Of a DNA stretch of 64,000 bases, positions 17,331 through 52,883 are shown piece after piece. The notes under the pieces are model-generated. The model saw only the letters and a program-made list of their open reading frames with translations, did no database searches and was not told where the DNA came from. The stretch is from Hirudinaria manillensis (lineage: Eukaryota; Annelida; Clitellata; Hirudinida; Hirudinidae): assembly GCA_034509925.1 (NCBI GenBank), contig CM067529.1, positions 4,102,001 to 4,166,000 of the forward strand. Reading direction: 5' to 3'. The translations under genes were made by a program, and so were the position numbers. The stretch's first letter is position 1; each line of letters starts with the position of its first letter.

Positions 17331-18317
17331 TTAAAAGTGTTTTGGACTGTTTCAATATTGGATGTCACGTTGTTGTTGTTGTTGATGTTGTTGTTTATCG
17401 GTTGCGTGTATATTATTCCAATTTCTTGGCTTTAGATTGCATGAAATAAACTCTTTAAGAAGCACTAAGAAGAAATAAATACTAATAAAAATAAATTGTG
17501 TTTCATGGGTCAGTCTACTAGCGGAAGCATGTGCTTCCTTAAGGCTGGCCCTTTGAGTTTTATTTTTTTTGCTGCTCTTTTCAGTTTTTTGTGTTAATGA
17601 AGGAATAAACTCATAAACCTCAAAAAAAAAAAATTACAAATGAAATCCCCAACCCCAAGTTGTCGAAAAATTCAGTTTTCCTCCGAGGCCTGCGTTGTTT
17701 TTATCGAGATTGTGTTTAGCACTCCTTGGTGGGTTTGTAACTACCATATGCCGACAATACCTTTAAAGAGCTTCCTTCCCCTTATTCTGAACTGAGTGGG
17801 CCTCGAATCTTGCGGCATTAACTAATTATGATCATGATTAGAAAAAGATTTAAAGCGTTTTTTTTACCTAATGGCTATTATTTCTATTAGGTTACTTAAA
17901 GTGTTTGTAATTTTTCATTGATTAATTGATGCTCCAAAACTTCAATATTCAAAAATATTGTTCGGGATTCTGAAAATTATTTATTCACAAGTAATTTCAT
18001 AAATTCGTAATTTCTTTCAATAGAAATGTACTAAAATACATACTCTAAATTTGAAATTTATCTTAGTCGCAAATACAAAACACAGGTGCTATCTATCTTT
18101 GCTCAGGTGTGATTACCCGTCTATCCAAACACTCGCCGATGCATAGAAGCGACTCTTAAATGCAAGTTAGTTCTTTAAGCAAATAATTTAATTATTTTAA
18201 TCCAACAAACGGAATCAAGTATTACGGAGAATGCCAGTCGTTAAATCTCGTTTTCCCTCCGAAGCTTAAATCGTTCAATTTGCTTCCCGGAGTCCTGTAA
18301 ATAATCAAACCAATATC
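17331..18317. other. LARP7 3' UTR and spacer before the Cache-EGF gene
   Basis: Contains the LARP7 3' UTR with a (TTG)n-like stretch near 17370-17395 and the poly(A) signal listed separately. From about 17650 to 18300 no coding region or recognisable element was found. The promoter of the next gene should lie in the last few hundred bases. Confidence 0.5.
17445..17450 (+). terminator. LARP7 poly(A) signal AATAAA
   Basis: A canonical AATAAA lies 115 bases after the LARP7 stop codon. Further AATAAA hexamers follow within 60 bases, so the exact cleavage site is uncertain. Confidence 0.6.
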
Positions 18318-21300: not shown

Positions 21301-22637
21301 TGCAGCTCTTTGGAGAAGTCTTGGCAAACACTATGGGCGATCTGAAGCTCAAAGCCAGTGGTGTCTTCTATGACCTTAACAAGTTCGTTGACCACAACGG
21401 CATCACTAGGCAACTCTTCGGACCTTACGCCTACAGATTCGAAAAGCCGCCCGATCCAGCCAGCCCGACTTCGGATGTGGCCAACACCAATTTCAGGGCG
21501 GTCGATTGGGCAGGCTATTCTACCTCCTATCTGGATGAGTCGTGGTTCAAAAATGTCAAGGAAAGGTGGCAATCTAATACCTACGGTCTGAGCAAGTTCA
21601 GAGAAAAGCTGGTCATAAGGAGTGATGAAAATGGTACCAGTCAGGTAAAATTTCTGGGCATTTGCATATTTTTTTGGCATGTAGATTTAACCAAATCATG
21701 GATGATTAAATTTTCCTGTTGCAGGTTAATTTCCTCTTGTTTCCCATGTACTACAAAGCTCCAAGAGAAGAGGACGGGCTGTGGTCAGTGCCTTACTTCA
21801 GCTGCGATGGAGAGATCAACGACTGGCTGGTCACATATTCCGTTCCCTTCTTTGGGCTCAACTCTGTTGGCACAGACATAGAATTCAAGTAACCTCGAAC
21901 ACATTTTTTTTCTAATTAATTTTAATTATTTGCCACTTTTGACTTGTTGTTCAAGTTGCATTATTCAAGAATCATAAAAGTATTTTGTGATGTTAAAATA
22001 TATTCTGAAAGTCATCACAGATATATCTAAGCTTAGGTCAACCAGCAACAACTTTCTTGTCTTTACAGTCATTGCATTACAGAAATTAACTTCCTAATAT
22101 TTCAGGGGTGTTGTGACAGTGGATGTGAAGCTAGATGAACTGGACATAAACCAGTGCCCACAGGATTATTTTGTTCCTAATGCATTTAAAGATACAGCTA
22201 GATGTCACTATGAAACCACCTATGTAAGATACATTTTTCTGCCATTGTTTGCCTCTCAACGTGCTTAATTAATCATTTCTCCACCAGTGTGTCTACCTGG
22301 CTGGAAAGAAGTTTGTTAAGGGAGCCTACAAGTGTGAATGCAAAGTGGGGTACGAATATCCCTTCAATGACAATGCCTGGTACTTTGATGGCCAGACCAT
22401 GGAAGAGGAATACAGGAAAAAGATTGTAGGGGATAAACAGACAAGGTTAGGGAATTTACAATCCAAGTCGTGATAGATCTGCAAAATCGATTCTGATCAT
22501 AATTACATTTTAACTGTTATCCTAATTTCAGGTATGATAATCTCCAGTGCAGAATATCCATATCATCTCAACTATCAAGCCCGTCCTTCATACTGATATT
22601 TGTGCTGCTACTGTGCTTCTCGATATTTTCTAAATAA
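18318..22637 (+). CDS. Secreted or anchored protein with two GPR158/179-type Cache-EGF ectodomains
   Basis: Ten exons: 18318-19303, 19501-19627, 19895-20060, 20317-20761, 20835-21138, 21306-21644, 21725-21888, 22106-22223, 22288-22445, 22532-22637, giving 970 residues. An N-terminal signal peptide (VLVSLLAIAAIILTA) is followed by two copies of one module: a Cache-like region with LFGPxAYRF, then (P/E)PYF-x-C, W(I/L)V(S/T), an (I/V)DxNxCP segment and a small EGF-like stalk (GGYKCMCKPGYRYP in copy 1, GAYKCECKVGYEYP in copy 2). This matches, from memory, the extracellular part of the orphan receptors GPR158 and GPR179 (GVMKVDINLQKVDIDQC and GAYECICKAGFYHP in human GPR158). The seven-helix domain is absent. 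The protein ends in a hydrophobic stretch, FILIFVLLLCFSIFSK, suggesting a GPI signal or short anchor. The copies are joined by an acidic linker flanked by two furin-type sites. A ligand-binding co-receptor or decoy role is inference. Confidence 0.85.
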
Positions 22638-30003: not shown

Positions 30004-30470
30004 TTAATTAATGTCCTTTTTATTTTGGAAAGGTTCAGCAATCGCCCGGCAACTGGCAGGAGCACAAAAGAAAGGTGATGCAGCAAGAAGCCCCATAATT
30101 TAAATTATTATTATTATTATTTTAGATAATCTCAAAGGGTCAATGTACGTCAGAACTGTTAACTAATTTATAAAACATTTACCTGTTAAGAAACATTAGT
30201 TTATTCATTCATTCAACTTACGCGCACTCAAGGTAACAGAGATTCTCGTAGGTGACCCCACTTAATGAGCAAACCTTGTTTAATTTGACTGGACATAGAC
30301 ACAGAGTCGAAACGTAGGGACCAGCCACGGCAGCTCCATGTGTTATGTCTTCAAAGAATTGGAAAAATGAAGTATATCTCAAAATTAAACTGAATTAGAA
30401 ACAGATTTCTACCGAATTTATGACTGGCTCCAATGAAACAGAAAGCGAAGAATAGAGTGAATACCTCCAT
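30004..30470 (-). CDS. Small secreted Kazal-type peptide 1
   Basis: Three-exon model on the - strand: 30470-30413, 30348-30222, 30052-30004, 77 residues. Exon 1 is a signal peptide (MEVFTLFFAFCFIGAS). Exon 2 carries most of a Kazal domain: CLCP, then VCSLSGVTYENLC, then YLEC. Spacings C1-1-C2-7-C3-10-C4-3-C5 equal those I remember for leech-derived tryptase inhibitor. The residue in the reactive P1 position is Val, which would suit elastase-like targets. The donor GTAAGT at 30221 is excellent; reading through it instead gives a stop right after ECA and only five cysteines. Exon 3, after a strong pyrimidine tract, adds the sixth cysteine, though one residue after C5 and not ten. The leader differs from the SQQ leaders further along. 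A protease inhibitor role is inferred from the family. Confidence 0.7.
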
Positions 30471-30916
30471 TGTTAAAGATAAACTCAGACTGAAAGCGAT
30501 CGGCGACGAGCCACGCATAAATCGCCAGAGAAATCGATGATGTATGACATGGATTTGTCGACATGGCAATTTTTGCTTATCAATTGGAGATTGATCTTTC
30601 AGATCGTATTTTTTTTGCGATGAGATTTCTCGCGTGGAAGGATTCACTTTGGCGAGGGGAAGTCCTTTCATCTCAGAGGCCCAATCTATCAGAGAGGATC
30701 AATACCCTTCCCTCTTCAAAAATTTACTAATTAGAATTAACGAATGACTTGAGTCGAGACAATTTTAAAATTTATCTCATTATTCGTCATAAATCATTCA
30801 AAATCATCGTCCGTTTGGACATTTCCCCCGATAATCAAAACACTGGCTCTGAACCACTCTGCCAGACGTTGAACAACCAATTATTGAACACCAAAGCAAG
30901 TTATCTGCTGCTAATC

Positions 30917-30922
30917 TTTATT
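30917..30922 (-). terminator. Poly(A) signal of Kazal-type gene 2
   Basis: AATAAA on the - strand, overlapping a second copy, about 64 bases after the stop codon at 30986-30988. Confidence 0.45.
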
Positions 30923-30985
30923 TATTAAAAAAAATAATGATTAATTAGTTGTTAATTAAATTTAAAATAAATGACAAGTTGGATG

Positions 30986-31623
30986 TTAAATGTCCATTTT
31001 GTCGTTCATTTCAGGCTGTCCTTCTTCTGGACATTTTCCAATTCGTTCTGGATAATCCCCTCTGCGGAGTCATCATCAAATAAATTATGTTTATTGCTTT
31101 TCTTGATATGTGCGCAATATGCCTAGTATTATTTGTTATTTATATTAATTTCAGCAATTAATTTAATATTCAAATTATGGTATAACTAATTAATGATTAA
31201 TTATGGATTAACATAAAGTTAAAAGTAGGTTCGTTGGAATTCAGATCACCCACGCGCAAAACAGTCTGCAGAGATTGTCGTAACTGATTTTCATGACAGA
31301 GCAGAAAGGTATCCCAGTATTCGCGCAGCGGCAAAGGTCACGGCACACTTCGACACTGTCTCTCCCCAAAGCACTTGTACTTACGTTGTAATTCAACCCT
31401 AAGTCCCTCAGGATGTTAGAGACAACTCTCAGAACTGGACATTTTCGATAAAGAGATTAATATTGAACAGGTTCATTAACATTAAACGTAGACATTTCTA
31501 AATCGACTACATGGGGTTATGAACCTCCTTCCTAGCTAGTTCAGCACACAAAGTGAACGTACTTCCACGACTTTGTCCGAAGAAAGAACATGCAACCAGG
31601 AGGATGAATAGATATTTTCCCAT
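30986..31623 (-). CDS. Small secreted Kazal-type peptide 2
   Basis: Three exons on the - strand: 31623-31563, 31434-31254, 31061-30986, 105 residues. Exon 1 is a leader (MGKYLFILLVACSFFGQSRG). Exon 2 gives LCRCANTGIPFC, SVMKISYDNLC and RLFC. Exon 3 begins AGDYPERIGKC. The cysteine spacing from C1 to C6 is 1-7-10-3-10, exactly that remembered for leech-derived tryptase inhibitor; the last spacing is only reached by splicing at GTGGGT (31253), which supports the three-exon model over read-through to a stop at 31241. An additional cysteine (EVCRDL) precedes C1, leaving one cysteine unpaired. The P1 position is Asn, an uncommon choice. The exon 3 end (NDKMDI) resembles that of Kazal peptide 1 (NKKDIN), so the two genes are paralogues. 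Confidence 0.75.
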
Positions 31624-33406
31624 TCTTGATGCGCTTGAAAAAGAGAAATTATAAATCATCTACAAAGTGTCATATAATGGACTCCTTTTAATAGTCTTAG
31701 GAATTTAGAAACAAACGGCTTTTGTCGAATCATAATTGATTCTAAACATGCAATCAACAATCTATTCGTGCTTGCCGCCATCCAACATGCTGATAGGAAC
31801 ATCCATTTTTTATTGATTTATTGAATTTACATTTATTTCAATTTTTGTTTTTGCTTCCGATTCATCTTCTGGACGTCTGCTTGTACTTGATGCGATTTTT
31901 TTGCGATTTGTTTCATTATTTCTATTAATCTCCTCAAGACGGGTAAATCCAATCAAAGCGATTCTTGATTGGACAAGGACAATAATAAATCATTTTAATT
32001 TTTATCAATTGTTTGAATTAAACTAATTATTATTAAATAATTAAATATAATTTTATTTACTTTCTGATATACATGTATTTGGTGATAGTCATTCTGTATT
32101 TATTGGATTTGCTATTTTCGCCCGTTAATTAATTAAACCATGATCTTCAAATTAATTGTCGAGAAGAAATCGATTATCGAAATGACATCGTGCATTCGAA
32201 ACAAATAACTGATGTCCTGGTTACTACTCATAGATCTACGCGTAGATATGGTGAGAGGACACACAGGCTCTTATGCTTTGAACCTCATACCTTATCTTCA
32301 AGGGCAAGCCCCAGTATGTGTAGTTCCCGAGATTTACAGGTCTATCATACACGCCTGCATTTGTGACTAAAATTGATGTTTCCCACATTGAGATCCAAAT
32401 TGGTCCCGACCATCACAACCGCTCTTCTCGAAATGTAATTATTATTTATTTATTTATTATTCCTTAATCTTTTAATAAACAACATTTATATTATTCACGA
32501 ACGTCATCTTTGCCGGATCTCTTAAGACTTACTCAGATGAGAGAGAATTACTCTATGATTTGATAACAACAACTGTTAATTACTACGTTAAATAATATTT
32601 TATTTACCTAATTAGGGCATACGTGAGTAAAACCTTTTGTTAATTCATAAAAAGTCACACGATCAAAACAGTTGGCACGCAACAGGTCAAGGACAGTTGA
32701 CCTCAGTGTAACGTCATTCGGCGCATCGTTTTTAGATGTACTTTTTGGAATCCATTAAAAAAATCCTCAAATAAAAAAGACTCCAATTTAAAATCAGATT
32801 CTCATAAATATTTATTACTAATATTTTAAATAAAATCTTGTTATTAATATTTATAATAACGGAATTGAAGACGCAGAAATTGCTCAAATTGTTGAACGTC
32901 GATTAAATCGCAAATCAGAAAGTTGGCTGAATTTAGGTGCTCGCGTTGCGTTTTTTTGCTTCTTCTTCTCTCTTTTTCTCTAACCTTCTCTTGCGTCTTT
33001 CCTCTCCTAAAAATGCAATACATTAATTTCACTAAAATTGCAAATATTGAGATGAGTTGCTATTACTACACGATCACGATAATGCAATTGTACTTTATCA
33101 TCAAAATGAACTCTGCGGCAAATATAGAAATTTTCTTTAAAAAAAGTGATATCCTATTAAATCCGTCCCACTAGCAATAATAAAAATAGTAATATTTACA
33201 TAACAACTACAATAACACTTATTAATATTTCATTTCTGTGCAGAGATGGGCAATGCAGCTATTCCCAGAGAAGCACACCAACTTAAACCACCTAGAGCTA
33301 AAAGATCTTATCATTAGCCGTGGGGTCAACAGCCTCGTAAGCAAAGGTGTTCCCAGCCACCTTTCCCCTAAATTACGCCCCCCTTTTATTTTTTATAAAG
33401 TATTGT
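31624..33406. other. Spacer within the secreted-peptide cluster
   Basis: AT-rich. Two short stretches look protein-like but cannot be placed in a gene. One is a - strand stretch near 32,230-32,395 containing VYDRPVNLGNYTYWGLP. The other is a - strand Lys/Arg/Glu-rich stretch after a TTTTTAG acceptor near 33,003, which might be an alternative 3' exon. The segment 33,240-33,360 is open in more than one frame and could be a mobile-element fragment. No complete gene was found. Confidence 0.35.
31679..31700 (-). promoter_or_regulatory. TATA-like promoter motif of Kazal-type gene 2
   Basis: On the - strand, ACTATTAAAAGGAGTCC lies about 60 bases upstream of the ATG. The block AAAAGGAGTCC is also present upstream of the Asp-rich gene at 34.2 kb. 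Confidence 0.45.
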
Positions 33407-34168
33407 TTACATGAAAGAAATATATGCCAAAATGAACCAACTTCTTCGCTCGCGTTCTCGTTTTCGCTTCCAATGACTGCGGTGGACGGCCGCTAAGTCA
33501 GTGTCAAGCTCGACGTCGGCGTCCAAGTCATCGTCCAAGTCAGCCTCCACGTCGGCGTCCAAGTCGGGGTCAAGGTTGGCATCGACAGTGACCAACAACT
33601 TATCAGCATTTTCGTTAAGCACTTGAAAGGGAATGGAGAGATTTCATAAAAGATAAAAATTAAACCAGACTAATATAATATAATATAATATAATATAATA
33701 TAATATAATATAATATAATATAATATAATATAATATAATATAATATAATATAATATAATATAATATAATATAATATAATATAATATAATATAATATAATA
33801 TAATATAATATAATATAATATAATATAATATAATATAATATAATATAATATAATATAATATAATATAATATAAATGCTTTTTGACTACTGCTTTTAACGC
33901 ATAATGAAAATAATATAATAAATAACAAATTTGTAACAAAGGCTAACGTTGTTCGCTCAATGCCTCATCGTTTGTATCAGCAACTACATTCGTGTTGATC
34001 TCTAAAAACGAAAGAGAGATTATAACTAATAACTATATTTATTATACTAATTGAAGCCAAATATATAATCGAATAACATATTTATTTTTATAAGTATCAA
34101 TGAGTCTCACGCTGTTGGCTGAGTGCCAATAAGCCGAATACCAGGCAGAAGATTAGTAAGGACTTCAT
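33407..34168 (-). CDS. Secreted Asp-rich precursor with basic C-terminal tail
   Basis: Three exons on the - strand: 34168-34111, 34001-33948, 33621-33407, 108 residues, with both introns phase 1. Exon 1 is the shared leader (MKSLLIFCLVFGLLALSQQ). Exon 2 adds INTNVVADTNDEALSEQ. Exon 3 holds a run with Asp/Glu at nearly every second position (NLDPDLDADVEADLDDDL), then HRSHWKRKRERERRSWF and a short hydrophobic end. An acidic pro-region followed by a cationic segment is the layout of many antimicrobial-peptide precursors, but no dibasic processing site separates the two cleanly and there are no cysteines in the mature part. Function is unknown; Ca2+ or mineral binding by the Asp run is equally possible. 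AATAAA lies just after the stop (33385-33390, - strand). Intron 2 holds a (TAATA)n array. Confidence 0.6.
33671..33872. repeat. (TAATA)n array, about 40 copies
   Basis: Almost perfect pentanucleotide array inside intron 2 of the Asp-rich secreted gene. On both strands it yields meaningless long open frames. Confidence 0.95.
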
Positions 34169-34211
34169 TGTTGTGTAGCCTCGAACGGTAGCAACTTAGG
34201 CTTTTTTGGAC

Positions 34212-34232
34212 TCCTTTTAAAACTTTCAGATT
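34212..34232 (-). promoter_or_regulatory. TATA-like promoter motif of the Asp-rich secreted gene
   Basis: On the - strand, CTGAAAGTTTTAAAAGG lies about 45 bases upstream of the ATG. The core TGAAAGTTTTAAAA recurs upstream of the other SQQ-leader genes. Confidence 0.5.
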
Positions 34233-35619
34233 CAATTGATTGAAGGCTCTAAGTATGTTTTGTCAAATACAAACTGGGTTTAAAAATAATATTCAATAAA
34301 TAAAAATAATAATTAATTACTAGTGATGAATTGTTTTTATTGATTTACATTAATTTGTTAAACATGTTGCCATAATGAATGTTTTTTGCTTGTCATTGGT
34401 CGATGTTAAAACCAAAATTTCATGCAAGATTGATTTCATATTCATGTTTTGAGAAAAATTTAGCAAATTTCCTAAAATTCAGAAAGTAAAATTACATTTG
34501 AAATTGCTATACGAAATCATTGCCCAAATAAATTGCAGAATTTCTTACATTCGATTTTTAAATTCGTAAAAATGGTCTCTCCTATAACAAAGGAATGGTA
34601 TCGAAGATATTTTTTAGCAATTACGATATGCTGAAATAATCATTATAATTGCTTCAATAATCATCGTTGTGTAATACCAAATCTATAATCTTTGTTTCTT
34701 GCTATTTTACAGTTTACAATTGATTTTTCAGAGGTGATTGGGGCTCTTTGGGGTTTCTTGTTTATCCCAACAGGATTTGAACACCTCAATAACAACAAGT
34801 GCGATTTCAACTTTCAATGACAGTAACGAATAAGATCAAGTTGGTATGCAGGATGGTCGAATGCGGCGGTTATGGCAACAGTTGTGTTTGATATCCAGCC
34901 TGCAAAGAGCTGCAAGGGCCTAAATGATGTGCCCAACCCGACCCGTAGTCATATTTAGCAGGTCCGTATAGATTGGGTCGCCGCTAAAGATGGGGATACT
35001 TGATTTAGCGCACTTAAGTGAATCGAATATCACGATGCCTTCAGTAAGTTCACACCCTCAAGCACTGTAACTACTTCCAGATCCGGAGAGTTACACATGG
35101 AGCTATTCCAAGGCTTCGTCCCTTTGATCGTTGTTGAACAGTTAAAAATGTTAAAACGCTTGATGCTAAAAACTTGTCTCGTTTCTATAAGTACATTAAT
35201 CCTTGCCATATTTTCATTATTCATTTCAGTGCATCACCGAAACCCTGATTTGAATATTTTATGATAATTTTATTTCTCAGACACTTGATTTGTTTGTCGA
35301 TTTTCCTCCGAATACGTAAATATTTTTTCACAATAACAATGAAGATTGTTTCATTATTCAATAACTACATTCATATTTTATTAGAAAGGACAAATTCTTT
35401 TTAAATATATGAACACATGTATTTATTTTTATTATATTATTTTATTTATAATTTCATTCATTTATAGTTAAAGTTTTACTTATAGTCTACAAATGTCTCT
35501 CATCATGTTGGCTGGATTAGCAACTCTAACGGCTTTTCCAAAAGATCGGCTGGAAAATTATTTGTTTGGTGGAACTTCAACCTAGTAAATGACGAAAATA
35601 CAACGCACTGATGAAAACG

Positions 35620-35929
<310 letters not shown>

Positions 35930-35960
35930 GATTAATTGAACCTTTATTTAATCGATCAGT

Positions 35961-36275
35961 TTATGAGAGGACAGTAACCCAATGATTATCAAGATTCTTG
36001 TGGTCAACAGGTTTCACTTCTGCATCAACAGGTTTCACATCAGCATCATCACGTTTCAGAATCGCATCAGTTTTAGCATCATCATCGAACCCTGGGACAT
36101 CGTGGACGTTTGAACCAGACCCTGGGAATCATGAAATTTTCTTAAACTAATAAATTAAATTTATAAAATAAATACCATATAATATAAGGGAAAAAATATA
36201 ACAATATGTCTCACACAGTTGTTGGCTCAGTCCTAGGAAGCCGAAGAAGATGCAGAGATACAAAAAAGATTTCAT
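35961..36275 (-). CDS. Small secreted peptide with Lys/Asp repeat
   Basis: Two exons on the - strand, 36275-36215 and 36121-35961, join in phase 1 to 73 residues. The leader (MKSFLYLCIFFGFLGLSQQL) belongs to the SQQ family. The mature part is short, acidic and lacks cysteine: NVHDVPGFDDDAKTDA, a KRDDADV stretch that could be a KR processing site, and a duplicated DVKPVD/EVKPVD element. AATAAA follows the stop within 20 bases. The family is not recognised. The leader exon is convincing; the mature exon rests on one good acceptor (ATTCCCAG) and frame continuity. Confidence 0.55.
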
Positions 36276-36337
36276 TGTTGGCGAGCTTCAAGTAGAAACA
36301 TAAACGAAGTAACTGATGACAGAACCAAGTTCAGGCT

Positions 36338-36357
36338 GCTTTTATAACTTACAGATT
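36338..36357 (-). promoter_or_regulatory. TATA-like promoter motif of the Lys/Asp-repeat gene
   Basis: On the - strand, CTGTAAGTTATAAAAGC lies about 65 bases upstream of the ATG and contains a canonical TATAAAA. It aligns with the TGAAAGTTTTAAAA core of neighbouring genes. Confidence 0.5.
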
Positions 36358-36743
36358 AAATTTAAATTTAAATCAATTCATTCTTAGGTTCATTTATCAA
36401 ACACCTTTCCAGGCAAATCGATGAATTTGCAATTAAACGTGAAGCTTAAAGGTTTTTTTTGGTTGATTTTCGTTTTGTAAAGTTGCATCATTGATTTTGG
36501 AAAAAAAGTTCTGAAGGATTGATTCAGTCACGAATAACTTTTTAACTGTTTGACAAGAAATAAAAATTCACTGAATCCATGTTAAGAGTCGATGGTCCGT
36601 TAAATCTATTTTAATGCAATTACGTAATTAAATTTATATAATTAAACAATTATTTTTTATTTTCTTAATTTAGTTGCTCTCATCGAGACGCAATCTGGCG
36701 AGCAATTTATTTTTTACGAAGTAACGTGATCAGGCCAAGCACA

Positions 36744-36876
36744 TATAATATAATATAATATAATATAATATAATATAATATAATATAATATAATATAATA
36801 TAATATAATATAATATAATATAATATAATATAATATAATATAATATAATATAATATAATATAATATAATATAATAT
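36744..36876. repeat. (TAATA)n array, about 26 copies
   Basis: Near-perfect pentanucleotide array upstream of the Lys/Asp-repeat gene. Confidence 0.95.
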
Positions 36877-37269
36877 CAATGCCCTTTGACTAATGAACTT
36901 AGTGGAGGATGGGGAGGGTCTGTAATGGTTTGGCCACGAGGGACAAAATCTTTTTACTATTGGCAACACAATTTGACTTAAAATTGGGTTCTTATAAGTT
37001 GGACCTGATGCAATACTAATATACATAAATAGAAACATTTTAATGACAAGTCTCTAATCTCGGCTCAGAATGAAATATTATTAACATTTTTATTATTATT
37101 AATAGCTTGGTAAAAAATTCGTCATCTATTCATTACATTTTTATTTACTGATTCCATTACTAACATCCAACATTTCGAAGTTTTATCAACTTTTATCAAT
37201 AAATTTATTTATTTTATATATTTAATTTATTAGTTTAAGAACAATTAAATAAACGAATTCTTTATGAAA

Positions 37270-37374
37270 TCAGGAACCATAATATTTTGAATTTGGATGT
37301 TTCTTGTCTAGTACTTGTTGTTGGCTCAGTCGTGGAAAGGCTAATGCCAGGCAGAGGAACAGAAAGTATTTCAT
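37270..37374 (-). pseudogene. Duplicated leader exon without its donor site
   Basis: The leader encodes the same 20-residue signal peptide (MKYFLFLCLALAFPRLSQQQ) as the copy at 38.6 kb, with an intact promoter motif at 37431-37450. Directly after the CAA codons the usual TGTGAGAC donor is replaced by AGTACTAGAC from an unrelated duplicated segment. Read through, it gives VLDKKHPNSKYYGS and a stop, 34 residues in all. It may be dead, use GTACTA as a weak donor, or express a minimal secreted peptide. Confidence 0.5.
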
Positions 37375-38008
37375 CGTTGTGAATCTTCAAGGAGAACCAC
37401 AAACAAAATGGCTGTTGATCAACTCAAGATGTTCTTAAAACTTTCACGTTAACTATTCAACACGACAGCATGACAACTTTTATCAATTTCTCCTTTTTAA
37501 ATAATCGATGAATCAATGATCAAATGTGAAGTTTAATGTCCATCTTGTTGCTAAGTTTAACTTTGATTTTGAAAAATAATAAATTCACAAAATAATTTAT
37601 AAAAAATATTTTTATTATGTATATTGTATTATGAAGTTAATGATTTGGTCAAAAATTCGCCATCTATTCATTATTCCCGAATAAGGGACTCGATTACTAA
37701 CAGCTAACATTTCAAAATTTTATCACCTTTCATTAAAAATTTTTATTTATTTTATATATTAAATTTATTAATTTAAGAACAATTAAATAAACGAATTATT
37801 TATGGAATCAGGAACCATAATATTTTGAATTTGGATGTTTCTTGTTTAGTACTCAGCACAAACGTTTAAATATTTCATTCCTGTGAATATAAATGTCACG
37901 TTTAATTTAAAAGAAAAAATTAACGACACATTTATCTCACAATTTTCAAAAATTGATTTCCGTGTTTATTAATTTTATATTTAACAGATAATCTCGAATT
38001 ACTAACGC

Positions 38009-38631
38009 TCAGTGCAGATAGCACTCGTTCAGATAGATTCTTTCACTTTCCGCGCAGGCAGGATCGTAGTTTTTACGGCAATTGCAATTTTTTGTCACTC
38101 TTGTAAGAATTGATTACATCTACCCTCACTTCTTTCTTCAGAAGAGATACATTGTCTCTTAGCTTGCTTAAATCAGACACTGGAAATGAAAAGAGAAATG
38201 ACTGGAAAAGCTAAAGTTTGAAAAGATATAAAAGAAAAACAGCAACCATAATAACAACTACAATGAGAATAATAACAACAACAGTCATAATGACAATAAT
38301 GATAACGACAAGACTAATAATAATAATAATAATAATAACGTAAGCGATCTTCATGGTCTTCGTCGGTCCCAACAGCCCCAAACACTGGAAAAATAGGAAA
38401 ACTTTCAGAACGATGTGATTGTTATCGACGAGATGGAAGTTCTATCATAAAAAATGGAACGCACGGTGATAAGCACAAATGATAAACAAATATATTTTAA
38501 TTTCAAGTGATTAATGATTAAAATAAATATGCAAATCGATAAAAATTAGGCTGGTAACAAGAAGTCTCACATTGTTGTTGGCTCAGTCGTGGAAAGGCTA
38601 ATGCCAGGCAGAGGAACAGAAAGTATTTCAT
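38009..38631 (-). pseudogene. Broken third Kazal-type secreted gene
   Basis: Three exons on the - strand: leader 38631-38571 (MKYFLFLCLALAFPRLSQQQ), 38384-38340 (LFGAVGTDEDHEDRL) and 38179 onward (LSDLSKLRDNVSLLKKEV). All joins are phase 1. The third exon runs into TAA at 38073. One base back in frame, after the A6 run near 38090, there is a Kazal core with CNCRKNYDPAC and ESERIYLNEC, spacing 1-7-10. The codon expected for C5 reads TGA (38009-38011), followed by GC and a GTTAGT donor, where paralogue 1 has TGC, GC and GTAAGT. So there are two independent lesions: a one-base frame slip and a Cys-to-stop change. The P1 residue would be Lys. If the homopolymer count is an assembly error, the truncated product could still be made up to C4. 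Confidence 0.65.
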
Positions 38632-38686
38632 CGTTGTGAATCTTCAAGGAGAACCACAAACAAAATGGCTGTTGATCAATTCAAGA

Positions 38687-38708
38687 TGTTCTTAAAACTT
38701 TCACGTTA
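38687..38708 (-). promoter_or_regulatory. TATA-like promoter motif of the third Kazal-type gene
   Basis: On the - strand, GTGAAAGTTTTAAGAAC lies about 60 bases upstream of the leader ATG. An identical block sits at 37431-37450 in the duplicated copy. Confidence 0.5.
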
Positions 38709-38860
38709 AAGATTCAACACGACAGCATGACAGCTTTTATCAATTTCTCCTTTTAAAATAATCGATAAATCATTAATAAAGTGTGATGTTTAATGTCCAT
38801 CTTGTTGCTAAGTTGAACCTTGAGTTTTAAAAATAATAAAATGCAAATATATAAAAAAAA

Positions 38861-39137
38861 TTAGTTACGCAAAAGTCCCACGTGTCCAGTATGGAAAAAT
38901 GCGAAGACATCTTCCAGCAAGTCTTCATATAGCTCTTTTTGATTTGAAGACGAAAAACGTAATTATGATATCTAATTAATATAATAAGTAATTATAAATA
39001 CAAATGCACTCAATCTATAATATATCAAAAATTATAAACAAATTTGTATTATTAATTTAGTAATCAATAAGCTCCATGAATTTGGCCAAGTGTCGAATGT
39101 CCACGTATGCCAGGCAGAAGATCAGAAAGGACTTCAT
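38861..39137 (-). pseudogene. Degenerate leader-type gene
   Basis: An ATG at 39137 starts a leader beginning MKSFLIFCLAY, matching the Asp-rich gene leader for about 30 bases, after which small indels destroy the SQQ end and the donor. A downstream stretch, 38934-38861, preceded by AG, reads ELYEDLLEDVFAFFHTGHVG and ends in TAA, and may be its former mature exon. No intact splice path joins them. Confidence 0.4.
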
Positions 39138-40071
39138 CTTTGTGGGGAAAACCACAACAAATGGCACTAAAAAGAGATTTTTATTCAAAAAGATAATCTC
39201 GATTCAGAATTAATTTTGAAAAAAATTTAAAAGCGGTTTTTTTTTATGTTATTTTGAGAACAATTGAGCGTGTTAAATGCGACAGTAGAAGATTTAGTGG
39301 TCCTCTGAACTTGTAAAGCGGCCTTTAACCAATTAAAGTTAATTAAAATTAATTTAATTAATTAATTAAAATAAATGTGATACCGACGCTATGTATGTAT
39401 GCACCGATCTTATTAGACAAAGTTGGGGTTAGGGTTACGGTTATTCTGCCCAGTATTACTAAAACACTGCTCTGGATTTTGCGATTTGTGAGTAAATTAT
39501 TTTAATCTCTATTTTATATTATTCAAACAATTCTTTTTAAGGATCGTTACGAATTTCAAGATTTAATCATGGAAAAAGCTGCAATAAATCGAATAAAATG
39601 GTATCACAAATTTCAAAGGAATTGAATTCTCTTTATTTTTAAAACTTTTCATTAATAGATAAAATAAATTTTATAAACAAGTTAATCGCGAAATCCTTTC
39701 TTCATTCTAAAATTGCTTCACCCTTGCGACGTCCTTAAATGTCTTTTGAAGTATTTCCTAAAAACAATTTTAAAAACAATAACCATGATTTTTAGAAATA
39801 AAAGCAGATAATTTGTAAAAAAAAAAAAAAAAGAAAGAAAAAGAACCTTAATCGTAAATGTTTGAACTTTTAAACATTTAAGCGGTAAATTTTGAATCTT
39901 CCAGAAAATTAACTAACATTGAAATGGATACAAGCTGCTAATAATATTAAATAAATTAATTATAACATAATATTTTAAATTATTATGTTAACAATTGTAT
40001 TAATTAGTAATATTTTGATTAATTTATTTCTAAGGTGTCAAGGCCTTTCCATGACAATCCCGATTACAATT

Positions 40072-42552
40072 TTAGGAAATATGGATATTCAAAGGGTACC
40101 AACAATTACGACGATAATGATGACGATGATGATGGTGATGATGAGGTCCACGACCAGAGAAAGGACCTGCTGCTTGGTCAACAAACGCATCGGCTTCATC
40201 ATCAACACCGAAATCTATAATATAATATAATATAATATAATATAATATAATATAATATAATATAATATAATATAATATAATATAATATAATATAATATAA
40301 TATAATATAATATAATATAATATAATATAATATAATATAATATAATATAATATAATATAATATAATATAATATAATATAATATAATATAATATAATATAA
40401 TATAATATAATATAATATAATATAATATAATATAATATAATATAATATAATATAATATAATGTTGGATCCCTGGATCCAGTTAATTAAAGAATATTTAAA
40501 ATTATATTGCTAATTAATTCATTTAATAATTAATTAATGTTCAGGGTACTATTCAGTCTCTTTCGTTATGAACCTCGACAAATAGTTATCTCGAAAAGGA
40601 GAGCGAGAATAAGAGAAACAGCAGATTCCAAGACTTAGACAATTGAGCATTTTACATCTTCCAAGCCATCTGAACACTTTCAATAAACCTGACCTTCCAT
40701 AATTAGTTTGAGGACCCCGGGTTATTACAATAATATAATGTAATGTAATATAATATAATATAATATAATATAATATAATATAATATAATATAATATAATA
40801 TAATATAATATAATATAATATAATATAATATAATATAATATAATATAATATAATATAATATAATATAATATAATATAATATAATATAATATAATATAATA
40901 TAATATAATATAATATAATATAATATAATATAATATAATATAATATAATATAATATAATATAATATAATATAATATAATATAATATAATATAATATAATA
41001 TAATATAATATAATATAAAATAACTCAAAAGAAAATTGACCTGGGTTAACGACCACATCGTTGACTTCGTCATTGTTATTGAGGTCTGCGTCGTTCAGCA
41101 GGCCATCACCATTCCTATCAAACACTGGAAAATAAAGTAACTACTGCAATATTATTCATAGTTAATATAATATAATATAATATAATATCGTAACGAGGAT
41201 GTTAACGCCTTCCATGTCCATGACCATCTAAAAAACTTTGACCTGGGTTAACGACCACATCGTTGACTTCGTCATTGTTATTGAGGTCTGCGTCGATCAG
41301 CAGGTCATCACCATTCCTACCAAGCCCTGGAAAAGAAAGTAACTACTGCAATAATAGCTATGAATATACTATAATATAATATAATATAATATAATATAAC
41401 ATAACATAACATAACATAATATAATATAATATAATATAATATAATATAATATAATATAATATAATATAATATAATATAATATAATATAATATAATATAAT
41501 ATAATATAATATAATATAATATAATATAATATAATATAATATAATATAATATAATATAATATAATATAATATAATATAATATAACATAACATAACATAAC
41601 ATAACATAACATAACATAACATAACATAACATAACATAACATAACATAACATAACATCAGATCACATAACATAACATAACATAACATAACATAACATAAC
41701 ATAACATAACATAACATAACATAACATAACATAACATAACATAACATAACATAACATAACATAACATAACATCACATAACATAACATAACATAACATAAC
41801 ATAACATAACATAACATAACATAACATAACATAACATAACATAACATAACATAACATAACATAACATAACATAACATAACATAACATAACATAACATAAT
41901 ATAATATAATATAATATAATATAATATAATATAATATAATATAATATAATATAATATAATATAATATAATATAATACAATATCGTAACGAGGATGTTAAC
42001 GCCTTCCACGTCCATGTCCATCAGAAGAACTTTGACCTAGGTCAACGACTACATCGGAGTTGACTTCGTCCTTGATATCGAGGTCTGCGTCGATCAGCAG
42101 GCCATCACCATTCCTATCAAACACTGGAAAATAAAGTAACTAATGCAATATTATTCATAGTTAATATAATATAATATAATATAACATAATATAATATAAT
42201 ATAATATCGTAACGAGGATGTTAACGCCTTCCATGTCCATGACCATCTAAAAAACTTTGACCTGGGTTAACGACCACATCGTTGACTTCGTCATTGTTAT
42301 TGAGGTCTGCGTCGTTCAGCAGGTCATCACCATTCCTACCAAGCCCTGGAAAAGAAAGTAACTACTGCAATAATAACTATGAATATAATATAATACCAAA
42401 TTAAGTAACATAATCAAGAAGGTAAATTATTATAGCACAATGAAATAATATAACTATTCAAATTATAACCTAGTTAGTAAAAAAAACGCCTCACATTGTT
42501 GGCTCGGTCCTACGTAGCACAATGTCAGACAGAGGAGCAGAAAGAGTTTCAT
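40072..42552 (-). CDS. Secreted protein with four EF-hand-like loop exons and alternative ends
   Basis: Leader exon 42552-42495 (MKLFLLLCLTLCYVGPSQQ) ends in phase 1. Four 84-87-base exons follow: 42345-42262, 42123-42037, 41326-41243, 41124-41041, each phase 1-1. Exons two and four encode FDRNGDGLL(I/N)DADL, an EF-hand or dockerin-like Ca2+ loop with Asp/Asn at 1, 3, 5, 9, Gly at 6 and Asp at 12. Exons one and three read LGRNGDDLL and have lost loop positions 1 and 6. Two possible 3' ends fit in frame: 40589-40549 (DNYLSRFITKETE, stop) or 40214-40072, which gives FGVDDEADAFVDQ and then PHHHHHHRHHYRRNCWYP before a stop. Products would be 145 or 179 residues. The His-rich acceptor lies within the TAATA array and is weak. 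Repeat exons are certain as sequence; the complete transcript is inferred. Confidence 0.55.
40216..40461. repeat. (TAATA)n array, about 49 copies
   Basis: Near-perfect array between the two candidate terminal exons of the EF-hand-like gene; its edge supplies the AG used as the putative acceptor of the His-rich exon. Confidence 0.95.
40731..41018. repeat. (TAATA)n array, about 57 copies
   Basis: Array in the intron after the fourth EF-hand-like exon, starting about 23 bases from its donor. Confidence 0.95.
41370..41975. repeat. Composite (TAATA)n / (TAACA)n array
   Basis: Between EF-hand-like exons two and three. The blocks run ATAAT, a short ATAAC block (41396-41418), ATAAT to about 41580, ATAAC to about 41897 with two ATCA-type interruptions, then ATAAT again. 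The sharp block borders show that a single T-to-C variant was amplified as a homogeneous unit. Confidence 0.95.
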
Positions 42553-42638: not shown

Positions 42639-42871
42639 TCAATTTGTTTCTCCATTTATCAAGCCACCACTTCACAGATAAATCAATAAATTATGTACGA
42701 AATCTGAATGATAACCAATGAACTTTTTTTAAGTCAGAAATGATTAATATTTCATTGATTTTTGTAGAAAAACGTTCATGGAGAGTTACGTCAGTGAAAA
42801 GAATGGAAATACCTGAACAAGTGAAAAACTAAAATAAAGCAATATGGAGAAGAAACATCAATAAAATGTCT

Positions 42872-42937
42872 CTCAAAGTTATTGGTTGAATCCTAACAAG
42901 TTGAATACCAAAGAGAGGACCGGAAGGACCACTTCAT
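42872..42937 (-). pseudogene. Frameshifted leader exon
   Basis: ATG at 42937 on the - strand starts a leader-like stretch (MKWSF then stop in frame). In the next frame it reads VLPVLSLVFNLLGFNQ, clearly a decayed leader of the same family with an indel near its start. A promoter-like GAAAGTTGTAAAAC remains at about 43,005-43,020. No mature exon was found downstream that is not already used by the EF-hand-like gene. Confidence 0.5.
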
Positions 42938-45633
42938 TGACTAGGAGATTCGATAAGAACTACGACCGAGGAGAGGGAAGGAAGCAGTTCCAGTAAAGAC
43001 TGCAGTTTTACAACTTTCAGATCAAAGGAACCATCCGCTTTTTGCAGTTTGTTTATAAGAATTAATTTTCTTTATATATATATATATCTTATATTTATAT
43101 ATTTACACTGCCTTTTACAGCTATATTATAATTATTAAATTATAACTGCCAATAATAAGCTGTTATTATGTATAGCAGACTTTCTTCTTGAAAATGAAAG
43201 CCAAATGTTCCAAACCATCATTTTACATAAAATTAGGTTATCGGATAACAAAGGGGCTTTCGATCAAAGCTATTTTATGATAATTGTGAAATTATGAAAG
43301 TTTCGTTTAAAATACATAATAATGTTATTTTAATGTATTATTTCAGACCTTGACAAGATTACCGTAATTTTGTTCCGCAACTTGCCTTTCAAATTTGATT
43401 TTTAATGATCTTGGACTTTCTGTAACTTTTTCTTCTTCGGATTTTTTGTCCACAAATGGAAATATTTTCGTTCAGTTACTTTTTAAATACTGTGTGAGTA
43501 TTGGATGAAATTAATTAAGTTATCACTTCTAAGGGGAATATATTTTACGATTTGTAATGTTTGATTTTATAAAATTATGTTTCAAATACCTTTTTTGGTC
43601 CTTTGTTAAATTTAACAAAACCGGTCAATTAATGACTTGGTTCACTTTTTCAATCGACTCAAAGATCGAAATATTCTTACACGTTTACAATGTTTAACAA
43701 TGCATATTAATAACGTCATATAATGCAATGTAGTTACATGTTTCTCTATCAGATGTCATTAGATACTCTTAACATAGTTTTCTGGCGGGGAATCCATGAT
43801 TTTATATTTCTGTGTCTCGTTATGTATACTTGATGCTATAGAATTATATTCCGTTGCCGAATTTTAGAAGATAATTTGAAATGACTAATGTTACTTGAAA
43901 ATATGCGAAATATCTGAAATACGTTTTATTGTAAATGTGACAAATATCTCAGATCAGATGCAGAAAAAAGTTCAAAGACACCGCTTGTAACGAGATCGAT
44001 AGCTTTCTTTGAGCAGGCCTTTCACAAGAATTAAGGTCCAGATAAATAGAATATCCATCGCAATTACTCATAAATAAATTTATAAATATTTATAATATTG
44101 TATAAATACAATGCAAAAGTAATTGAATCTTGTTTGTAGCAGTTGCGCATCATGTGGTGAGCAGAGAAACAGTCAGATCATCGCCATGAGTCGATTTCAA
44201 AACGCAATAAATGCAGAAAAATATTCTAATTACACAACAATTGCTTTCAAACTTTCAATAATTCTTCGTCAGAAACATTAAAACGTGCTGATTTTGCCAG
44301 AAAAGTTACTTTAAAAAAATCAAGCGAGTCTAGCTAGATGTGTCTGATAGAAATGATTCCAAAAGCTTGTCCACTTCACAAAGCTATTTTACCCGTCTTG
44401 TCGTTTATCCAAGATTTGGCCGAAGTTTACCCATGTCAGGACAGCTAGCCAATGAGAGTCACATTCTGCTGGCTGACAGCCAATTCGAAGCTCAACACAA
44501 CCGAATAGACACCGAAGATTTCGTAAAACATCGACGAAGACAAAGGTTGAAACGATGAGAAAGTAGCTAACGAACTAGGTGAACAGTAAGCATTCTCTAT
44601 GGTACACTACGAGATGAAGAACAGGCATGACAGAGGAATAGATTTTCAGAGAATGTTTCGCTTTGATGCTGCAACACAAAACGAATTGCCTGCTAACTCT
44701 CAAATGAACGAAAACAGTAAAGACGATTACAGGAAATAAATACTATCAGTCACTTGTAATACTGATGCAATAAAGGCGTCCCAACGCAAGCTGTTCTGTC
44801 ATCTCTGAACGCATTTGCCAGAGATCAAGTTAGCGCGTTACAGATGAAATGGCAAATAAATTATAAAAATAAATAATGATTTTATCTATATAAATATAAT
44901 AATTATTTCGGACTGTCGTGAACAAACAACTTTATAATACTGCTTGAACGACAACCTCAAGAATAACAACAACAGATGGAGGCAAATGAACGAACGAATG
45001 AATGAAGGAATTGGAAAAGCATTGATCCACCCTATGGAATTCTTATTGGACCACAACAATATAAAGCTGGCATTTTCAGTGCAATGACAGGTCACGATTA
45101 AAAGACATTTAAAGCATCGACAGATATTTGTTATCGAGTTAAACGCAATATAGATTTCATTGCAAGTGAGTATATCTAAATCTACAAGATACCAACATAT
45201 GCTATGCATGTTAGTACACGTACATAGATATAGAAATGACAAATCCACTCGATAATAAATAAATGCAATGAAGATGAGTTCCAAAAGCAACAACAAATGA
45301 ACAAATAAGCGAATGATAAATCAATTCTTGATATTACCGGGTCGAATATTAAAATAGCATTGTTTTTACCATCCATTTTATGTCTTCACTGACGGCCATT
45401 TTCCCTAGAAAGATCTTCGTATATTTACCTAGCGCTTAACTCTATCTGGGATGAATGATAAATTAAATCGGTGAAAGACGGTCTGAAATACAATGAAAAA
45501 AAAATTGTAGCCATTTGAGTGGATTAATACGAGACATCGAAAACAAACAGCATTTGAAGAGATAATTAGCCGTGGAACTTCGAGAAATACGGATCAAAAT
45601 TTCCAAGATCCTCTGCTTTTAGTCGAAGGAAGT
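42938..45633. other. Intergenic spacer at the end of the peptide cluster
   Basis: AT-rich with a short (TA)n tract near 43,073-43,087. A 72-codon + strand frame at 44,340-44,558 has no leader, splice context or recognisable motif. No gene is supported. Confidence 0.4.
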
Positions 45634-50940
<5,307 letters not shown>

Positions 50941-52883
50941 GTCGTCTTTAGTTTTCTAGAGGTTTTCTACTTGATGAGGTTTCTCTGATGGAAAGGCCAA
51001 GGACTATTGGAGTCGATGTAGTTGCGATTTTCTAGTCGATCTAAGAAATAAGAAGCAATTTGAAGTCGTACCGGTAGAGTAATTATGCAATCGCAACAAG
51101 TTAATCAGCGACAACTACAAAGCAATAACAACGTTATTTAATGACGACAACAACAATAATAAGAATCTTCAAGTACAATCTCTTTGCAGTACCAGTGAGC
51201 TCAAATCAGAACTGGATTCTTGGAGAGTCCAGGTTAATGGAACCTGGTCATTCATTTGTCATTGAGCCAGTAATTTTAATAACATTCTGCCTGTAACCCA
51301 TTGGTAATGTATCGATATTCTATCGGGATTCATGGCGGAAGGTAACAAGAGGCGAATCACCGACAAACTGAGGCTGCAATTAACTTTCAATGAATCACAA
51401 ATAGCTCTAAAAGAAAGACCGACTGCAAAACATAATAAAAAGACAATGGTTGCATCGAATAAGACATATAAAGAGACAGAGATAGATAGAAAGAAAAAGA
51501 GAGAGAGATGGTGAAAGAGAGAAGTAAATTCTGTGAGAGTGATAAACAGAAAGTGCGAGAGAAAATGAAGTAAAGTCATCGCAGAAGTGAATCGGTCATG
51601 CTATGAATGTGTCGTCGTAACAGGATCACAACCTTCCTAGTCAACCCAGCCAAACAAGCGACCGGTCATGCAAAGAGATAGCTACGGGAAGAGGATCATA
51701 CATACGCATTCATGTAATGACAGACAGGTGGTCATTGAGAAAGACAAGGAGAGAGAGAGAGAGAGAGAGAGAGAGCGATTGAAAGCGAGAGAGAGAGAAA
51801 GAAAGATGGAGAAGATAGAAAGCAGCCTATCTGTATCGAGGGCGCGAACAACTTCAAGAGAAGTCCCGGTTGTCAGGTCCAAAAACTAAAAAAAAAAACT
51901 CTAAATGGACACTTTATCGCTCGCCGCCAACATAGAAAAAACAGCAACAACAAACACAGAACCTTTGATCGTAGATTGAATGACCTGCAATAATACGCCG
52001 AGATCATCGCTCCGCTAGAATAGCGCGCACTTGCAGTATAAAATGATGGCGGCCAAAATCCGAGTGGCGATATTAGAGGAAGATAAACAAGCATAGACAT
52101 CCGAGTCCTAGCACTTGCGTAATACGATCGCCGATGTATCCATCGACGACGGTGGAAAATCTGCTTCCAGGTCTTGGATACTCTGAGTATGGTTTAGTAT
52201 GTCTTGTAAAAACTCAATTGACGATATAACATAAACACAGGAGGAAGCGGTATATGATATCTATGCCATCCTGATACGGACTTATATTAGTGATCCTTTA
52301 CTAAGCCCTTCTCAGGCACGGATTGCCCCATGGAAAGGAGGTGTGGTGGGGTTGCAATTGCAGAAAGAAACATTTCGACGTGGAAAATGTCTTGAAAGCA
52401 ATTCAGAGAAAAATGTGAAAATTGTTAATAACAAAAAAATATATTAAAATTAACAAAACGCATAAAAGGACTGGTATTCCAGTATTCCGAATTTAGAAAA
52501 TTTTCCGGATTCGCTTTTCCACCTCCGGTTGCCATGGTAACCGACGAGGCTGCCGTGGAGGCTGTGAATCGAACTTCTAGGAACGAAATGACTCTTGTAA
52601 ATGTTTCTAAATCGTCGTAAAAGCGCTTAGAAAAATATCGTTACGTATGAAAATATAGCTGTAGGTCTCTGTTTGCTTGTGCTTGTGGTTCTCTGTGCTT
52701 CGGTGTCCGTATTATTATGTGTAAGTGTATGTGTGTGTGTGTATATATTTGTATATGTATGTGTGTTTGTGTATGGTAAAACCATTAAATTCTTCAAGCG
52801 GTGGCTCTTCAATGATTTTTGTTGATTGTCTTGCGAGCGATAAATGAAAGGCTTTGAATAATGTGCAGTGATGATGATGATTA

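What the first reader, a model, noticed from the sequence alone, without database searches (positions are those of the whole stretch)
30004..42552. Modular cluster of small secreted genes: one leader exon, different mature domains
Four SQQ leaders (34.1, 36.2, 38.6, 42.5 kb) encode MK-x-(F/L)L-x-x-C-L...SQQ and end in phase 1. Each is joined to a different mature part: Asp-rich plus basic tail, Lys/Asp repeat, Kazal (broken), or EF-hand-like loops. Three more leader copies are chimeric or decayed. Two Kazal genes with other leaders lie in the same row and orientation. This is the pattern of a birth-and-death family in which a secretion cassette is reused by phase-1 exon shuffling, as in venom, salivary or immune effector loci. 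I know of no described family with this set of mature modules.
Basis: partly seen in the sequence, partly recalled or inferred. Interest (0 to 1): 0.88.

Follow-up and report, generated by a model that had tools for sequence, protein, structure and literature searches.

The report
Leech cluster of acidic secreted genes
A buffalo-leech chromosome carries a small row of duplicated secreted-peptide genes with a similar secretion signal and fast-changing, mostly acidic bodies, next to protease-inhibitor genes; it looks like ordinary gene duplication and divergence rather than a shuffled cassette, and no description of the peptide family was found.

Summary
The window lies on chromosome 4 of the blood-feeding leech Hirudinaria manillensis (assembly statistics; 15,581-base mitochondrial contig). 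The four SQQ leaders are real: each has a conserved start context, a TATA-like box 55-77 bases upstream and a phase-1 GTGAG donor. A donor-end pattern has exactly four matches in the 148-Mb genome, these four, and none for the reversed control; so the leader is not a mobile repeat. One chimeric copy, two decayed copies and one diverged relative at 3.62 Mb, beside another Kazal row, were also found. "Different mature domains" holds only partly: the Asp-rich exon of the 34.1-kb gene is homologous to one EF-hand-like exon of the 42.5-kb gene (0 of 2000 shuffles; weaker with the other copies); the 36.2-kb exon is only weakly linked. The Kazal exon given to the 38.6-kb leader is broken. Two other Kazal genes share a putative intron position with other Kazal exons of this chromosome; one shares 14 promoter bases with the 34.1-kb gene. 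Best reading: a lineage-restricted birth-and-death family of small, mostly acidic secreted peptides, with exon duplication among TATAA arrays. Expression and function are not shown.

The parts
42495..42552 (-). Leader exon (coding part) of gene C, MKLFLLLCLTLCYVGPSQQ, phase-1 donor T|GTGAGG; TATA-like box at -77
42262..42345 (-). EF-like exon 1 of gene C, phase-1 start; either weak phase-1 donor G|GTCAAA or runs on to a stop at 42221
41996..42123 (-). EF-like exon 2 (to its stop), loop DRNGDGLLIDAD
41202..41326 (-). EF-like exon 3 (to its stop), 1 substitution from exon 1
41041..41124 (-). EF-like exon 4 (to putative donor G|GTCAAT); otherwise runs into the TATAA array
40072..40214 (-). Probable last exon of gene C: acidic N part, His/Arg-rich C part; putative acceptor lies at the end of the TATAA array; AATAAA about 45 bases after the stop
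42866..42968 (-). Decayed leader copy, frame broken
39105..39147 (-). Decayed leader copy, frame broken; hit of the leader model not used in building it
38571..38631 (-). Leader exon of unit D, MKYFLFLCLALAFPRLSQQQ, phase-1 donor T|GTGAGA
38314..38384 (-). Short acidic exon of unit D (phase 1), running into an ATT repeat
38007..38179 (-). Broken Kazal exon (frame broken before the first Cys, stop at the place of the fifth Cys, by eye)
37315..37374 (-). Chimeric leader copy: leader identical to 38.6 kb, usual donor replaced by sequence repeated at 37742-37853
36215..36275 (-). Leader exon of gene B, MKSFLYLCIFFGFLGLSQQL, phase-1 donor T|GTGAGA; TATAAAA at -72
35961..36121 (-). Mature exon of gene B (Asp/Lys-rich), phase 1; poly(A) signals about 12-16 bases on
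34111..34168 (-). Leader exon of gene A, MKSLLIFCLVFGLLALSQQ, phase-1 donor C|GTGAGA; TATA-like box at -55
33943..34001 (-). Optional short acidic exon after leader A, phase 1, ends in a stop
33407..33621 (-). Mature exon of gene A: Asp-rich part then basic tail; poly(A) signal about 17 bases on; homologous to EF-like exon 2
31563..31623 (-). Leader exon of Kazal gene K31.6, phase 1 (donor GTACGT); shares 14 promoter bases with gene A
31254..31434 (-). Kazal-like exon of K31.6 up to 2 bases after Cys5
30986..31061 (-). Putative third exon of K31.6, supplies the sixth Cys and a stop (phase 2)
30413..30470 (-). Leader exon of Kazal gene K30.5, phase 1 (donor GTAGAA)
30222..30348 (-). Kazal exon of K30.5 up to 2 bases after Cys5 (Kazal_1 above cut-off); third exon unclear

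Best explanation
This is a tandem family of small secreted, mostly acidic peptides of a blood-feeding leech. The unit that was copied is promoter, 5' UTR, signal exon and start of the first intron, followed by one or more phase-1 mature exons. After duplication the signal stayed recognisable while the mature parts diverged by substitution, repeat growth and exon duplication among TATAA arrays; some copies died. The signal is probably cut after the S of SQQ, so that the secreted peptide begins with Gln-Gln (inferred), followed by an Asp-rich part that in several members ends in a basic or His-rich tail. The most likely action, inferred and not shown, is binding of calcium or of basic surfaces by polyacidic peptides secreted together with Kazal protease inhibitors.
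Against: No transcript, protein or orthologue was seen: protein searches of mature exons gave nothing. Of the EF copies only 42.1 ties strongly to exon A; EF42.3 with A gives p 0.04 and neither EF42.3 nor EF41.1 with A is in the p < 0.1 list of the local test, though anchored tests give 0.0027 and 0.0011. Gene B's exon is tied only weakly (anchored p 0.002; about 0.013 with EF42.3 and 0.3 with EF42.1), so it may be a different module. B also lacks the basic end. The EF-exon donor is weak. Selection counts are tiny and the leader pairs are not independent. The promoter stretch is the best of 15 comparisons, and K31.6 resembles no other SQQ promoter. No SQQ mature exon tested matches any Pfam model, so calcium binding rests on a loop motif alone.
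Confidence: 0.64

Rival explanations
1. Phase-1 exon shuffling: one secretion cassette was joined to unrelated mature modules.
For: Mature exons of B, D and the 3.62-Mb relative are hard to align with most others; the 37.3-kb copy has its leader fused at its very end to other sequence.
Against: Exons of A and C (EF42.1) are homologous; copies share promoter and 5' UTR, not just the leader exon; the one clear fusion (37.3 kb) replaces the usual donor. The mature exons of A, B, the EF type and 40.2 have no other copy in the genome at meaningful E-values outside this row, so no source of modules is seen at that sensitivity.
Confidence: 0.16
2. Mostly decaying copies: a relic family of an older Kazal-type or acidic secreted gene, with few or no working genes left.
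For: Broken leaders at 39.1 and 42.9 kb, broken Kazal exon at 38 kb, chimeric 37.3 kb; EF-like exons show no sign of purifying selection; microsatellites run into exons.
Against: Genes A and B keep TATA-like box, start, donor, acceptor phase, open frame and poly(A) signal; leaders look mildly constrained in 7 of 9 differing pairs.
Confidence: 0.16
3. The leader is part of a mobile or dispersed repeat.
For: Seven copies in 9 kb.
Against: Only these copies plus one diverged copy at 3.62 Mb were found by three genome-wide pattern scans and by the model on about 117 kb of other loci, some overlapping.
Confidence: 0.02

Closest known systems
Leech non-classical Kazal inhibitors (LDTI, bdellin)
   Same: Rows on the same chromosome; phase-1 signal exon; GT (putative donor) two bases after the fifth Cys in 13 of 13 exons matched by one spacing expression, the two window genes included. 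Bdellin also has a highly charged repetitive tail (PMC10671345, section 3.4 part 1 read).
   Different: SQQ mature exons of genes A, B and the EF repeats have no cysteines and no Kazal match. The label bdellin for the exons at 0.44-0.55 Mb is recalled; searches show only that the one tested is a Kazal exon.
Hirudin superfamily of leeches (hirudins, decorsins)
   Same: [quoted passage not shown] genes placed on chromosome 4 of the same assembly (PMC12651989, passages seen).
   Different: That superfamily has a six-Cys globular domain; the SQQ peptides A, B and EF have no Cys.
Conotoxin-type gene superfamilies of cone snails
   Same: Conserved signal with hypervariable mature part (recalled; search listing only).
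   Different: Here Cys-poor acidic peptides, a handful of genes, expression unknown.
EF-hand / dockerin D12 calcium loops
   Same: DRNGDGLLNDAD fits the spacing DxNxDGxLxxxD (motif recalled).
   Different: No Pfam match at E up to 10 for the two EF-like exons tested; flanking helices not established.

Membership tests
Leech non-classical Kazal inhibitors (genes K31.6, K30.5) | Kazal domain by profile | tested here: inconclusive
   K30.5 above the Pfam cut-off (26.4 vs 21 bits); K31.6 no match at E up to 10
Leech non-classical Kazal inhibitors (genes K31.6, K30.5) | Intron two bases after Cys5, as at the LDTI-like exons of this chromosome | tested here: met
   GT two bases after Cys5 in both window genes and 11 other exons, 13 of 13; splicing itself not shown
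Leech non-classical Kazal inhibitors (genes K31.6, K30.5) | Sixth Cys supplied by the next exon | tested here: inconclusive
   A fitting exon with a Cys follows K31.6; for K30.5 none was found at the usual spacing, by eye in the sequence
Hirudin superfamily (SQQ genes) | Six conserved Cys in the globular domain | tested here: not met
   Mature exons A, B and the EF repeats hold no Cys
EF-hand or dockerin proteins (SQQ gene C) | Profile match to EF-hand or dockerin | tested here: not met
   0 families at E up to 10 for the two EF-like exons tested, of four
EF-hand or dockerin proteins (SQQ gene C) | Calcium binding | not testable with these tools
   Needs protein
Birth-and-death secreted gene family | Tandem duplicates with decayed members | tested here: met
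Birth-and-death secreted gene family | Expressed and secreted | not testable with these tools
   No RNA data at hand; hydrophobic signal-like N termini only
Phase-1 exon-shuffled family | Unrelated mature modules behind one leader | tested here: inconclusive
   Not met for A and C, whose exons are homologous; B and D unresolved

The most novel reading that the evidence does not exclude
Pentanucleotide TATAA arrays act as the engine of the family: they lie beside the EF-like exons and directly at a putative splice acceptor (40214), and permit unequal exchange that multiplies symmetrical phase-1 exons, so that a leech secreted-peptide gene gains and loses acidic, calcium-binding repeats quickly, in step with a neighbouring Kazal inhibitor that has a related promoter.
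Probability: 0.2. Interest if true: 0.55.

Novelty: new member of a known kind. Interest (0 to 1): 0.42.

Why it matters
The survey of this leech genome whose methods I saw looks for known anticoagulant families with known queries (PMC10671345, section 3.3). A clustered, lineage-restricted set of secreted peptides without a profile match would be missed by such queries, and the row offers a compact case of signal conservation with rapid change of the mature part, including exon multiplication among microsatellites. If expressed in salivary tissue it would add a class of leech secretion products; if not, it is a tidy record of gene birth and decay.

Tried and rejected
Mobile repeat: rejected by three genome-wide pattern scans. 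In one search (up to 3 mismatches) 8 places matched against 2 for the reversed control; four are copies known from other calls (36.2, 34.1, 42.9 kb and 3.62 Mb). Of the other four, C2, C3 and C13 gave no model hit and by eye no signal peptide. The fourth, C4:5.09 Mb, reaches E 8e-5 with the leader model and has a hydrophobic stretch ending FLGRSQ, but it lies inside a longer open frame whose nearest preceding Met is over 80 residues away; I do not count it as a leader, without proof.

DNA similarity search of the genome was too insensitive to serve as a negative: the 42.5-kb leader found only itself, as did the 3.62-Mb leader.

Homologous proteins: EF-like exon 42.1, no candidate; alignment of exons A and B, 10 candidates, none at E up to 10. 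A control with a neighbouring large exon gave 69 relatives, the best 93% identical, so related animals are in that database; but short exons of split genes need not have been predicted there, so these negatives are weak.

Pfam and solved structures: nothing for the SQQ mature exons tested (best PDB match of exon 42.1 E 0.1, a polymerase tail peptide, taken as chance).

One search used wrong start coordinates for the two Kazal genes, so its 'no TATA' for them is void; one search repeats the look with the right starts: of 15 comparisons only K31.6 with gene A stands out; K30.5 and the 3.62-Mb copy show no significant upstream similarity. One search, a looser promoter pattern, gave 3 matches against 0.40 expected; 1 of 100 shuffles reached 3.

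The shuffle tests covered 55 pairs (9 of them printed as p < 0.1 both ways) and 15 pairs without correction; apart from EF exons among themselves only EF42.1 with A survives a correction in both. A with 40.2 is 0 of 3000 but p 0.02, and may reflect shared acid-then-basic layout rather than descent; A with B is not significant (p 0.06 to 0.13).

The signal-plus-donor scan asks for GTRAG and so does not return the two Kazal leaders, whose donors are GTACGT and GTAGAA.
Full report
Identity of the source. The window is G000:C4:4102001-4166000 of a genome of 148,429,096 bases in 23 contigs. Contig C1 has 14,755,599 and C6 11,463,318 bases; C23, which carries cox1 with TGA codons, has 15,581 bases. 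Liu et al. 2023 (PMC10671345, section 3.1 read) report for Hirudinaria manillensis 22 scaffolds of 148.59 Mb, longest 14.76 Mb, N50 11.46 Mb, and a mitochondrial genome of 15,581 bp. The totals differ by about 0.2 Mb; the other figures compared agree. I take the source to be this leech. An exon on chromosome 4 at 0.146 Mb resembles Kazal chains of known structure; agrin and ovomucoid rank first (E 1.4e-18, 2e-16), the leech tryptase inhibitor next (3.3e-14). That exon is one of two Kazal exons in a row there, as the paper describes for its LDTI gene.

The leaders. Four open leaders on the minus strand read MK-x-(F/L)-L-...-SQQ and end in a phase-1 GTGAG donor. A scan of the whole window for signal-like starts with a GTRAG donor returned these four as its only minus-strand hits between 19.6 and 57 kb. 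A sequence model built from six copies finds these six and a seventh not used in building, at 39.1 kb, E 1.7e-7 (9 rows at E up to 5, the last two at 2.5 and 3.4). Genome-wide, the 35-base start pattern with up to 3 mismatches has 5 matches, all here, control 0 (it misses 36.2 and 42.9 kb); the SQQ-plus-donor pattern has 4, all here, control 0. The model on 20 other loci (96,939 bases, some overlapping, including 10 kb on either side of the window and other Kazal rows) gave one hit, C4:3,620,600-3,620,661, E 5.1e-7, and none in 20 kb more beyond it. That distant leader reads MKLRLILFLIFNFVGLSYQ and lies about 2 kb from a Kazal row on the other strand; a Gly-rich exon after an acceptor follows it, but its donor is not clear (by eye).

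The copied unit. Similarity runs from a TATA-like box 55-77 bases before the start codon (6 of 6 leader copies tested; the 39.1-kb copy was not tested there) through the 5' UTR and leader into the first bases of the intron. Thus gene heads were duplicated, not a bare exon. The 37.3- and 38.6-kb copies are 93% identical over 280 bases: 20 differences, all in the first 172 bases, none in the last 108, which reach to the end of the leader. The 37.3-kb copy then continues in sequence repeated at 37.74-37.85 kb, so it is chimeric.

Gene C. Four EF-like exons stand among TATAA arrays, alternate in type (GL, VF, GL, VF) and would be symmetrical phase 1-1 exons if the weak donor G|GTCAAA is used; GTC also follows at the place of the putative donor of two Kazal exons on this chromosome (GTCAGA, GTCGGA). 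Three of the four also run on to a shared stop. Which form is made is open. EF42.3 and EF42.1 differ by 11 non-synonymous and 1 synonymous change plus one in-frame 3-base gap, too few for a firm claim of selection. For the leaders pN is below pS in 7 of the 9 pairs that differ; in the two pairs of 42.5 with 38.6 and 37.3, whose leaders are identical, pN is slightly above pS (0.25 and 0.23).

Kazal neighbours. K30.5 exceeds the Kazal_1 cut-off and resembles Kazal inhibitors of known structure, best rhodniin, E 7.8e-7, leech tryptase inhibitor 0.011. K31.6 has no profile match but shows the cysteine spacing, GT two bases after Cys5 (13 of 13 distinct exons matched by one spacing expression over the loci held then, all on chromosome 4) and a fitting third exon with a Cys. 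The genome has 69 Kazal_1 matches at E up to 0.1, a lower bound. Gene A and K31.6 share TTAAAAGGAGTCCA in their upstream regions, at -52 to -39 and -68 to -55 of the start codons; no shuffle of 2000 reached its score, and its 13-base core occurs in the window at these two places only. This is the best of 15 comparisons; K31.6 resembles none of the four other SQQ promoters compared, and K30.5 none of the five. It suggests joint descent or control of one Kazal gene and one SQQ gene.

Mechanism. Shown: similar gene heads, donor and phase, decayed members, homology of exon A with EF42.1. Inferred: cleavage after S, secretion, Asp-rich mature peptide, calcium or charge-based binding. The loop DxNxDGxLxxxD is recalled as the D12-type calcium loop; no profile supports it.

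Novelty. Searches of the paper library listed leech anticoagulant surveys and hirudin-superfamily work. Of PMC10671345 I read sections 3.1, 3.3 and the first part of 3.4 and saw passages; of PMC12651989, PMC12592272, PMC7191736 and PMC7261268 I saw passages. None of what I saw describes this family. The kind of system (tandem secreted genes, signal conserved, mature part diverging) is known.

Noticed in passing
L035:333-662 (-), chromosome 4 at 3.620 Mb: A diverged relative of the SQQ leader followed by a Gly-rich exon, beside another row of Kazal genes.
   Followed up: partly
L039 and L040, chromosome 4 at 0.44 and 0.547 Mb: Three Kazal exons that I take for bdellin-like (label recalled; the one tested is a Kazal exon above the cut-off), while the genome paper reports a single bdellin gene.
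   Followed up: partly
window 374-11937 (+): Very long open frames (2067 and 1187 residues) with repeated LPDGT...KRK-like motifs, resembling a giant exon of an ankyrin gene (recalled; no profile match over its cut-off for the one tested).
   Followed up: no
window 18270-21881 (+): Conserved exons resembling the extracellular part of a GPR158-like receptor (recalled); 69 relatives found for the first exon, none named as such in the listing.
   Followed up: partly
G000:C9:3026446-3027786: A copy of cox1 on a chromosome with the same score as the mitochondrial one, either a recent insertion or an assembly artefact.
   Followed up: no
window 50599-50955 (-): An open frame of 118 residues with a signal-like stretch, weak CIDE-N match below cut-off only.
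   Followed up: no
C4:5094302-5094328 (-), L059: Match to the end of the leader inside a longer open frame, with a hydrophobic stretch ending FLGRSQ; not counted as a leader.
   Followed up: partly
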